A stretch of DNA of 64,000 nt from a bacterium (GTDB lineage Bacteria > DRYD01), in NCBI GenBank assembly GCA_030549815.1, contig JAUQQQ010000004.1:100737-164736 (forward strand). The letters run 5' to 3'. Below the pieces are notes generated by a model. The model saw only the letters and a program-made list of their open reading frames with translations. It made no database searches and was not told the origin of the DNA. The position numbers and the translations under genes were made by a program. Shown in pieces: positions 6,284 through 30,317 of this stretch (its first letter is position 1; each line of letters starts with the position of its first letter).

Positions 6284-8809
6284 TTACAATATTACTCTTA
6301 TTCTTAGCATATCTGCCAAGGATGTTATTTTTCTTTGTAAATTTTCAAACTCCTCCTTATATAATTGTTTAAAAAACTCTTCCCTATCCTTCAATTGTTT
6401 ATACATAGAAAACATAACGTTCTGAGACTCCCATAGATTGTAGTTTAAACCTAACTTATACCCAAAATTAATAAAATCAATAATATTGTCAATAGCACTA
6501 ATATTTCTATTTTCCAAAATCAGGGGAATCCTTAAAAGCATATCTTTCAATTTTTTTTCAAATTTTCTCTTGATTTTCTCTTCATCCAACTTTAAATCAA
6601 GTTTGTCCCTATTCAAAATAAAATAAATTATATCCTCATAATTAGGATTAAAGTTCTCCATTAACTTTTCTATTTGATTATCGATAATCAGCAATGTTAT
6701 TAATTTCATTTCCAACGGTATAGGTTGATAATTATTATCGATTAGATTACGTATAATTGTTTTTTGTTCAAAAAATATCTCATCAATTTTTCTATCTATT
6801 TCTTTAACATTAGAGTCAATAAGTTTCCTAATTATTTTTCGTCGAACATTTACAAAAAATGAATCCAATGAAAACTTTTCTTGACAATATTCATCTATAA
6901 AATTAACAATATCTATAAAATTGCCAGATAACAAAAAAGTTTTCAATGTATGGAAAACTTCGGAAGGGTCAAAATCACCAAAACCACCATACAAATTCAA
7001 GTTCCCCAAATAAGCAAAAATAAAATTAACGTAACCTTCGGAAAAATCAATCATATTTGTATAACCCACCTTACCTGTACTAATCATATATTCACCTTCA
7101 ACATGTTTTTCCCAAAATTCAACATTCCAAAAACGCCCTAAATTATCAATATTTTTCAAAAATAACTTATTCGCAATAAAAGAAGCAACAATCTTATCAT
7201 TGTCAAAGTAAGCAGTTTTTACAAAATCATTAAATACTCTTAATCCATTACCATAATAGTTAGAAATAGCATCCTTAAGGATAGTCTCAACAACAGGCTC
7301 TAAATTTATTCCAAAAATCTCCTTAGGCGAAGCCTCCCTTCGGGTAGGCGAAGCCTCCCTTCGGGTAGGCGAAGCCTCCCTTCGGGTAGGCGAAGCCTCC
7401 CTTCGGGTAGGCGAAGCCTCCCTTCGGGTAGGCGAAGCCTCCCTTCGGGTAAGTTTAATGATAGCCCAATAAAGGAACTTCAGATTCTGAGTTGCTTCCA
7501 AACCCGATATATCATCGAAAAACCATCCGCAACTCGTGTACGCAAACATAATATTTTTGTATATCTCCAATAAATTTATAACTCTCTTTGCTTCCTGACA
7601 ATCCTCTATACCAAAATCTTCCATAAAAGCACAAACAAAATTAAACAAATCCTCCTTAGTTTTTATTTCATTATCTCTCTTTAAAATATACTCTATGTAG
7701 TTTTTTCTAATATCTTTGTCTATTTCCATTTTTTTCATTTCATTAATGTATATTTCTTCAAAAGTATTCCTCACACTATCTACAGCAAGCCTCAGATTCC
7801 TTCTCCATTCTTGAGAAGTATTTGGATTAAACCTACATCCACAATTCTCTTTCCATCTTCCTATACCATGAAAACAGCTCCACGATGTATTCTCGTTAAT
7901 TTCTGCTTCATAGATAATTTCGACATTATCAACATAATAACCAAGATTACAAACTTTAACATTTGGGGTAGAAAATAGATAATACAAAGAATAAGCCAGT
8001 CCCAATTCTCCGAATTTTTTGTGATGTCCATAGGTTTCACCATCAGCAGCAATAACAACAACATCATCTTCTTCTCTAAATTCCGACAAAATAGCTTTTC
8101 CTAACCTTTCACCATTACTCAATAAATCTTGAAAAGAAACAGCATGAGAAATATTTGAATTATAAGCAAAAACAATAATTTTTCTATCCTCATCAAGATT
8201 CACAATGAAAGGTTTATTGGGAAGATTTCCTTCATTATAAATCCATTGATTACTACCTATCTTTCTAAACCTTTTTATCTGGTGTGGAGCAAGAATAACA
8301 AACTCAATACCGTTTTTACTCAAGTAATTTAATGTTCGTAAATCTACAGCGGTTTCAGGTAACCACATTCCACGTGCATTCCTTCCAAAATGATACTCAA
8401 AGTCTTTCAACCCCCAATAAACCTGAACATCCAAATCAATGTCATTAGATAATGGCAAAATAACATGATTGTAAGCCTGAGCTATTGCATTACCACTACC
8501 CAATCTATTGTAACTCAATTTATCAGCTTCAAGTATTTTTTCATACAGCTCTGGTAAATTCCTTTTTATCCAATGCAATAAAGTAGGACCAAAATTGTAA
8601 CTAACATACTCCAAATTATTGACAATATTAACAATATAACCATTAACATCGAAAATGCGTGCATAAACGTTAGGAACATAACATTCAAAGGCAATCCTTT
8701 CATTCCAATTTTCAAAAGGATAAGCACTGTCTTGGAACTCTATTTGACCTACAAAAGGATTTTCTCGAGGTGGCTGATAAAAGTGCAAATGAAAAATAAC
8801 ATACTTCAT
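6284..8809 (-). CDS. GH57-family glycoside hydrolase with internal TRREASP repeats
   Basis: An 841-residue protein of glycoside hydrolase family 57, whose members act on alpha-glucans such as glycogen or related polymers. The N-terminal HLHFYQPPRENPF motif begins at residue 7. The catalytic nucleophile candidate is Glu152 (GMWLPETAVD) and the acid/base candidate is Asp256 (AADGETYGHH); both match GH57. A region with Cys/Trp-rich CSWSCFHG-like text lies further on. The C-terminal half fits the long DUF3536-type subgroup. Residues 454-495 are six perfect copies of the heptad TRREASP encoded by a GC-rich minisatellite. The start ATG follows the upstream stop directly (TAGATG) with GAGGG 7 nt before it. 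No signal peptide, so the enzyme is cytoplasmic. The substrate is not certain. Confidence 0.88.
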   Translation of the reverse strand: MKYVIFHLHFYQPPRENPFVGQIEFQDSAYPFENWNERIAFECYVPNVYARIFDVNGYIVNIVNNLEYVSYNFGPTLLHWIKRNLPELYEKILEADKLSYNRLGSGNAIAQAYNHVILPLSNDIDLDVQVYWGLKDFEYHFGRNARGMWLPETAVDLRTLNYLSKNGIEFVILAPHQIKRFRKIGSNQWIYNEGNLPNKPFIVNLDEDRKIIVFAYNSNISHAVSFQDLLSNGERLGKAILSEFREEDDVVVIAADGETYGHHKKFGELGLAYSLYYLFSTPNVKVCNLGYYVDNVEIIYEAEINENTSWSCFHGIGRWKENCGCRFNPNTSQEWRRNLRLAVDSVRNTFEEIYINEMKKMEIDKDIRKNYIEYILKRDNEIKTKEDLFNFVCAFMEDFGIEDCQEAKRVINLLEIYKNIMFAYTSCGWFFDDISGLEATQNLKFLYWAIIKLTRREASPTRREASPTRREASPTRREASPTRREASPTRREASPKEIFGINLEPVVETILKDAISNYYGNGLRVFNDFVKTAYFDNDKIVASFIANKLFLKNIDNLGRFWNVEFWEKHVEGEYMISTGKVGYTNMIDFSEGYVNFIFAYLGNLNLYGGFGDFDPSEVFHTLKTFLLSGNFIDIVNFIDEYCQEKFSLDSFFVNVRRKIIRKLIDSNVKEIDRKIDEIFFEQKTIIRNLIDNNYQPIPLEMKLITLLIIDNQIEKLMENFNPNYEDIIYFILNRDKLDLKLDEEKIKRKFEKKLKDMLLRIPLILENRNISAIDNIIDFINFGYKLGLNYNLWESQNVMFSMYKQLKDREEFFKQLYKEEFENLQRKITSLADMLRIRVIL
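7326..7451. repeat. Six perfect tandem copies of a 21-bp GC-rich unit
   Basis: The unit repeats exactly six times with start points at 7326, 7347, 7368, 7389, 7410 and 7431. Each unit contains two small inverted repeats: GGC-GAA-GCC (AGGC/GCCT with the flanking bases) and CCC-TTC-GGG. The tract is much richer in G and C than the surrounding sequence. Because 21 is a multiple of three the tract keeps the GH57 frame open and encodes TRREASP six times on the minus strand. No variation between copies is seen, which suggests recent expansion or active homogenisation. Confidence 0.98.
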
Positions 8810-29907: not shown

Positions 29908-30317
29908 AATAAGACATTAAAATTGTTTGTAAAACAGATGAAGAAAGTGCTCCAAATGAGATTAGGAAATTATTAGCTTAGGTTAAAATACCATCCAATC
30001 TCCTATCATTAGTTTTTACCTGATTTGAATTTCTGCCATTTTACAAACAGGACATTGTCCAATACATATTTTTTAATTCCAAATCTTCTTTTTTATATCT
30101 ACATATTTTTATATATATTACAAAGTCTTGATGATAGATAAAACCCATCCGCAAATACTTCCCTTTACTATACTATATTAGCTTTATAGGTTATATATTG
30201 GTTATCGTCAAATTATCATTTTCTTATACTTCTTGAAATGTTTTGTAGTGTGTTAAATAGGAAAAAGTAGGAGTAGAAGGGAACTTCTTGCATTAAATTA
30301 GTTAAAATAACCTCTTA
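29908..30317. other. 410-nt intergenic gap between convergent kup and flgC
   Basis: I see no intact gene, tRNA or clear terminator here. Short coding-like remnants are visible: on the plus strand at 29925-29982 a stretch reading VCKTDEESAPNEIRKLLA then stop, and on the minus strand near 30021-30077 a stretch reading CIGQCPVCKMAEIQIR then stop. The second has a Cys-x3-Cys-x2-Cys arrangement that could be a decayed zinc-ribbon end. Neither has an upstream open frame of useful length. Confidence 0.4.

What the first reader, a model, noticed from the sequence alone, without database searches (positions are those of the whole stretch)
7326..7451. Perfect GC-rich 21-bp minisatellite inside a GH57 gene, encoding TRREASP six times
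Six identical 21-bp units sit in frame in the middle of the enzyme (residues 454-495). They are far richer in G and C than the host DNA and contain paired GAA/TTC mini-hairpins. Perfect identity points to recent expansion. Copy number changes would lengthen or shorten a basic/acidic linker without breaking the frame, so it could act as a tunable linker. It may also be a mobile or genome-wide element that happened to land in frame.
Basis: partly seen in the sequence, partly recalled or inferred. Interest (0 to 1): 0.72.

Follow-up and report, generated by a model that had tools for sequence, protein, structure and literature searches.

The report
Tiny dispersed hairpin repeat inside gene
A 21-letter, GC-rich, hairpin-forming repeat that is scattered in about ten places of this AT-rich bacterial genome, including the ends of decayed transposons and the housekeeping gene lepA, has inserted cleanly into a sugar-enzyme gene and multiplied six-fold in frame, probably adding only a floppy 42-residue stretch to the protein.

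Summary
The array is real: six perfect 21-bp units at window 7326-7451, in frame in a GH57/DUF3536 gene. It is absent from the five nearest relatives in which the gene was found; taking out 126 bp gives the sister-species reading with no base lost or duplicated. It is not a GH57 feature but one member of a genome-specific family: 23 units (up to 3 mismatches) at ten places in 1.59 Mb, none with the reversed pattern, none found in six relatives. One unit lies in frame in lepA, at least three in an unknown ORF, one at the truncated 5' end of a tnpB. Four places lie at the tip of the left-end hairpin of IS605/TnpB-derived miniature (PATE-like) elements, where IS605 copies have the empty tip. Best reading: a very small dispersed palindromic repeat, analogous to intragenic REPs, Rickettsia RPEs and mitochondrial GC clusters, that inserted and then expanded in tandem. 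AlphaFold2 shows the insert disordered, interrupting the last turn of a helix. How the unit moves is inferred only. New member of a known kind; moderate interest.

The parts
7326..7451 (-). Array of six identical 21-bp units (+ strand GGCGAAGCCTCCCTTCGGGTA), coding TRREASP x6 on the - strand
   Evidence: exact 126-bp insertion relative to sister species
6284..8809 (-). Host gene: GH57 / DUF3536 protein, 841 aa
8003..8656 (-). GH57 domain match (residues 52-269), upstream of and not touched by the insert
7460..7813 (-). DUF3536 best stretch (residues 333-450), ending just before the insert

Best explanation
The tract is a member of a lineage-specific family of very small (21-bp), GC-rich, palindromic dispersed repeats. 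One or more units inserted into the GH57 gene, without target duplication or loss (shown by the empty site in two sister species), most likely after this species split from them, and the units then multiplied head to tail to six identical copies (inferred: slippage or recombination between hairpin-forming repeats). Because the unit is 21 bp and lacks stops in five of six frames, the reading frame survived; the product gains a probably disordered 42-residue stretch (predicted). The family is physically nested in the left-end hairpin tips of IS605/TnpB-derived PATE-like elements, the likely source or reservoir from which single units spread (inferred). A Y1 (HUH) transposase acting on single-stranded hairpins is the best candidate for the movement, and hairpin-templated copying during replication or repair is the alternative (both inferred). 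Confidence 0.72 is for 'dispersed small repeat, inserted then expanded'; for Y1-driven movement it is about 0.3.
For: Genome-wide census: 23 units at ten places, 0 with the reversed control pattern. Empty sites: GH57 in G002/G003 (AAACTTAAGGAG against AAAATAAGACAG / AAAATCAGAGAG, exact in length; protein alignment of five relatives); lepA loop in six relatives; IS605 left-end hairpin CTCTCCTTTTTAAAGGAGAG intact on C3 and C2, against CTCTCCTTTTTA-[units]-AAGGAGAG on C19 and variants of it on C12 (two places) and C10. The nested elements are IS605/TnpB relics: their right part matches the tnpB 3' end and right end. The only Y1 transposase matches among seven genomes are in this one, on C3 beside tnpB and on C2 at a contig end, and the unit was not found in the six relatives. 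Exact 19-mer in only one other contig of the species-genome collection, there in GC-rich sequence without an array, none in IMG/VR, plasmids or phages. Insert disordered in the model (pLDDT about 33) with a mean of 85 for the whole.
Against: No element was seen moving and no transposase has been shown to act on the unit. The C3 tnpA is interrupted (90-aa frame, then a frame break) and carries no unit near it. The lepA site is in a loop whose length varies by 1-2 residues among relatives, so that insertion is less exact than the GH57 one. Only ten places, so target rules are weak: a test for palindromic flanks was negative (p = 0.22; its loop limit was too short to recognise the IS hairpin), while a pyrimidine|purine flank pattern is strong but was chosen after seeing the sites (p = 2e-5 one orientation, 8e-4 either). 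The relatives' genomes are incomplete (71-88%). The empty IS605 hairpin and the filled ones belong to different IS lineages with different outer stems, so that site is equivalent in structure rather than strictly orthologous; the units could also be native to the second lineage's hairpin.
Confidence: 0.72

Rival explanations
1. Functional tunable linker: the repeat was selected in GH57 and copy number adjusts enzyme properties.
For: In frame, multiple of seven residues, perfect copies; the host fold is predicted intact around it.
Against: Same unit in unrelated genes and intergenic relics; absent in all five nearest relatives that have the gene; site is the end of a helix in the insert-free homologue; identical DNA rather than conserved protein with diverged codons; disordered prediction.
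Confidence: 0.06
2. Local minisatellite born in place by slippage in GH57, with the dispersed units being copies of it.
For: GH57 has the longest and only perfect array; tandem slippage readily makes such arrays.
Against: Sister species have no seed sequence at the site: the flanks are 72-75% identical and the insert has no counterpart. The most diverged units are in the IS605-derived elements, which suggests an older residence there than in GH57.
Confidence: 0.08
3. Assembly artefact: copies inserted or multiplied wrongly by the assembler.
For: Draft genome; the sister array on C5 lies at a scaffold join with a 127-bp duplicated overlap.
Against: The GH57 array lies inside a long contig with an intact frame on both sides; units with distinct flanks and distinct variants occur at ten places. 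Copy number alone may be wrong.
Confidence: 0.07
4. Classical REP/RAYT system: GTAG-tagged REP mobilised by a dedicated RAYT.
For: Within arrays each unit reads GTAG-GCGAAGCC..., 20-40 bp palindromic repeats with intragenic copies are typical (PMC3733652), and Y1 transposase relics are present.
Against: Few copies (23 against the usual more than 100, PMC2817692), no inverted pair of units flanking the Y1 gene on C3, GTAG is not present at the 5' side of single copies such as C10 and C18, and the Y1 gene sits beside tnpB as in IS605.
Confidence: 0.07

Closest known systems
Intragenic REPs, including Rickettsia palindromic elements RPE-4 and RPE-6 (PMC3733652)
   Same: 20-40 bp palindromic repeats, dispersed, found in frame inside genes as singles, dimers or groups that add 20-82 residues; some REP families are inserted inside larger palindromes.
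   Different: Here 21 bp with two tiny hairpins, low copy number, six perfect head-to-tail copies, no CGTC tag and no unit-flanked RAYT found.
IS605 elements of Halanaerobium hydrogeniformans with hairpin inserts in tnpB and right end, and a PATE-like derivative (PMC7290912)
   Same: Short hairpin-forming inserts of unknown origin inside IS605 parts; miniature derivative made of left-end hairpin plus tnpB 3' end plus right end.
   Different: There the 64-67-nt tnpB inserts are not found outside tnpB; here the unit is also in host genes and in intergenic DNA, and is tandemly repeated.
GC clusters of yeast mitochondrial DNA and double-hairpin elements (PMC4478555)
   Same: Short GC-rich hairpin-forming mobile sequences in very AT-rich DNA, prone to merging into clusters.
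   Different: Organellar; GC clusters have putative target duplications (AG or ACT), none seen here.
[quoted passage not shown]
   Same: In-frame tandem coding repeats whose DNA has dyad symmetry and which in some taxa associate with mobile elements.
   Different: 25-residue diverged protein motif of wide distribution; here 7 residues, identical DNA, one genome, also non-coding.
SDR5 and other very small mobile repeats of cyanobacteria (Elhai et al. 2008, cited in PMC3116915; paper itself not held, details from memory)
   Same: Similar size, dispersed, hairpin-forming.
   Different: Not compared by sequence; different lineage.

Membership tests
Dispersed small palindromic repeat (general kind) | Many copies at unrelated sites in one genome, above chance | tested here: met
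   23 units, ten places, 0 in the reversed-pattern control
Dispersed small palindromic repeat (general kind) | Empty site in a relative or paralogue | tested here: met
   GH57 exact; lepA approximate; IS605 hairpin
Dispersed small palindromic repeat (general kind) | Self-complementary unit | tested here: met
   GGC-GAA-GCC and CCC-TTC-GGG; 7-bp bulged stem across units
REP with RAYT | Y1 transposase gene flanked by two inverted copies of the repeat | tested here: not met
   Y1 gene on C3 lies beside tnpB, with no unit found near it; second copy on C2 runs off a contig end
REP with RAYT | GTAG next to the palindrome | tested here: inconclusive
   Present inside arrays, not on the 5' side of single copies on C10 and C18
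REP with RAYT | High copy number, usually over 100 (PMC2817692) | tested here: not met
   23 units
Rickettsia RPE / CGTC repeats | CGTC at one end | tested here: not met
   Unit GGCGAAGCCTCCCTTCGGGTA contains no CGTC on either strand (sequence)
Rickettsia RPE / CGTC repeats | In-frame insertion into protein genes | tested here: met
   GH57, lepA, C5 ORF and tnpB relic
IS605 PATE-like elements (the carriers, not the unit) | Left-end hairpin and right end of an IS605 without the genes | tested here: met
   C12:75469, C10:602-935, C19:37207-37451; C12:94998 has the left part only
IS605 PATE-like elements (the carriers, not the unit) | Mobilised by a TnpA in trans | not testable with these tools
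   No intact tnpA is assembled
VNTR / contingency locus | Copy number differs between strains or reads | not testable with these tools
   One assembly of the species; no reads

The most novel reading that the evidence does not exclude
A 21-bp double mini-hairpin is itself a transposable unit, among the smallest known, that leaves IS605-derived end hairpins and enters pyrimidine|purine junctions as single-stranded DNA without target duplication, staying in frame when it lands in a gene.
Probability: 0.15. Interest if true: 0.7.

Novelty: new member of a known kind. Interest (0 to 1): 0.42.

Why it matters
It adds an unusually small and clean case of a hairpin repeat that lives in transposon ends and also decorates housekeeping genes in frame, with an empty site in close relatives. 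That gives a concrete system for asking how repeats of about 20 bp move without a transposase of their own, and how proteins gain disordered segments. For annotation it warns that the TRREASP tract is not a GH57 feature.

Tried and rejected
Palindromic-flank preference: tested, not significant. Spread to other species, viruses, plasmids, phages: none apart from one exact 19-mer in GC-rich Rhodocyclaceae sequence without an array, judged chance. Homologues of the C5 ORF in relatives, to get a further empty site: none found. Literature searches for this exact repeat or for units in IS605 hairpin loops found only the analogues listed. The idea that DNA folding of the whole array is exceptional was dropped: its energy is within shuffles, only the RNA fold exceeds them. 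The extra-stable d(GCGAAGC) DNA mini-hairpin is contained in the unit; that link is by sequence and general knowledge (one search lists papers on extraordinarily stable mini-hairpins), with no test here.

Full report
Observation. The array is at 7326-7451, six identical 21-bp units, by far the strongest tandem repeat in the window. It is in frame in an 841-aa ORF on the minus strand with GH57 (residues 52-269) and DUF3536 (333-450) matches. GC is 67% in a 29% GC window. Chance is not a candidate.

Is it a GH57 feature? No. A search of 40 genomes found the gene in five of the six nearest relatives (G002-G006; the exception G001 is 71% complete), and in all five the match stops at residue 450-454 and resumes at 496 or later. 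The multiple alignment shows a clean 42-residue gap in all five. Taking the 126 bp out of this gene gives ...WAIIKLKEIFGIN..., against ...WAVVKIRQMFDIN... and ...WSVVKIREIFDIN... in the two sister species, with no base gained or lost. The flanks are 72-75% identical, so the insertion is younger than that split or was lost cleanly in both sisters.

Is it genome-wide? Yes. A degenerate 21-mer with up to 3 mismatches finds 23 units at ten places and none with the reversed pattern. One of the 23 is a duplicate across a scaffold gap. The six nearest relatives have no match to an array query, though they are incomplete and an empty answer is weak. The exact 19-mer occurs in one other contig of the species-genome collection, in GC-rich sequence without an array, and not in viral contigs, plasmids or phages.

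Where do the units sit? (i) GH57, six units. (ii) lepA (elongation factor 4) on C5, one unit coding GEASLRV in the variable segment before PISGFKEPKP; six relatives have no such segment, and without the unit the stretch from VC to EP would be nine residues against eight to ten. (iii) A long ORF without Pfam match on C5, three units in frame; the assembly joins two contigs there with 100 N and a 127-bp repeated overlap. (iv) A tnpB relic on C18 that has lost its N-terminal part; the unit codes GEASLRV right before the preserved GKPIAIDFG. (v) Intergenic: upstream of lepA, and on C10 at 120628. (vi) Four places (C12:75552, C12:95052, C10:839, C19:37338) inside related elements of about 130-330 bp.

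What are these elements? The right parts of three of them match the tnpB 3' end and a right end with the hairpin GAAGCTCCTCGTTTTAACGAGGAG followed by AGGAGGTCAC; their left parts can form a two-step hairpin AGCCA...CTCTCCTTT / AAAGGAGAG...TGGCT (folded for C19 and C12:75469, while the decayed C12:94998 copy folded otherwise). This is the anatomy of a PATE-like derivative of IS605 as described in PMC7290912. The IS605 on C3 (Y1 tnpA relic plus tnpB) and the copy that runs off C2 have the same inner hairpin, CTCTCCTTTTTAAAGGAGAG, with no unit at its tip, and a different outer pair (GTTGC/GCAAC), which supports the structure. In the miniature elements the same hairpin is opened at the tip by two to four units. 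So the repeat is nested in transposon-end hairpins as well as in genes.

Unit anatomy. GGCGAAGCC T CCCTTCGGG TA: on each strand one C(GAA)G mini-hairpin, and across unit borders a longer bulged stem. Among 14 units compared by column most changes fall in the loops or next to them, for example TTA/TTC/TTG in the second loop; numbers are too small for a test. Flanks of the inserts tend to be pyrimidine-rich on the left and purine-rich on the right (p = 2e-5 for five sites outside IS ends, 8e-4 if either orientation is allowed), a pattern noticed before it was tested. A direct test for palindromic flanks was negative.

Effect on the protein. AlphaFold2 models from 13 homologues have mean pLDDT 85 with the insert and 90 for the sister protein. 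The insert is disordered (residues 457-497 under 50). In the sister protein the site lies in the last turn of a confident helix (436-456), so the insert opens the end of a helix rather than lengthening a loop. The GH57 domain is upstream. The mRNA of the array folds into a strong rod (z = -3.83), which could slow ribosomes; not tested.

Mechanism. Shown: dispersal, clean insertion without duplication or loss, nesting in IS605-derived end hairpins, in-frame tolerance. Inferred: movement as single-stranded hairpins by a Y1 transposase, or templated copying at replication forks; later tandem growth by slippage or unequal exchange. Clean insertion without target duplication is what IS200/IS605 enzymes do (PMC7290912), and the only Y1 matches among the seven genomes searched are in the genome with the units, but one genome is no correlation.

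Comparison. REPs inside genes, including Rickettsia RPEs, are established (PMC3733652), some REP families are inserted in larger palindromes (same paper), and GC clusters in yeast mitochondria are a close physical analogue (PMC4478555). The family here fails the RAYT-flanking and copy-number features of REPs and the CGTC tag of RPEs, so it is filed only under the general kind of small dispersed palindromic repeats, as a new member.

Noticed in passing
G000 C3:75578-75741 (L109:4579-4742): Another coding minisatellite, 24-bp unit, 6.8 copies, reading MPFGGMPS repeats in one frame; unrelated to the 21-bp unit.
   Followed up: partly
G000 C10:602-935 with L059:1127-2425: A PATE-like copy carrying the units lies about 190 bp from ORFs that read like cas2 and cas1 (by eye, no family search).
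   Followed up: no
G000 C5:83365-83464 (L057:3366-3465): Scaffold gap of exactly 100 N that duplicates 127 bp, the right-hand contig starting inside the unit array; the ORF there is probably continuous.
   Followed up: yes
window 30113-30198: 86-bp match, 78% identical, to part of the C3 tnpB, with no ORF: probably a decayed tnpB remnant.
   Followed up: partly
G000 C18:62522-62661 and C2:1-227: Both contigs end in pieces of the same IS605 element, so an unassembled second IS605 copy probably lies between them.
   Followed up: partly
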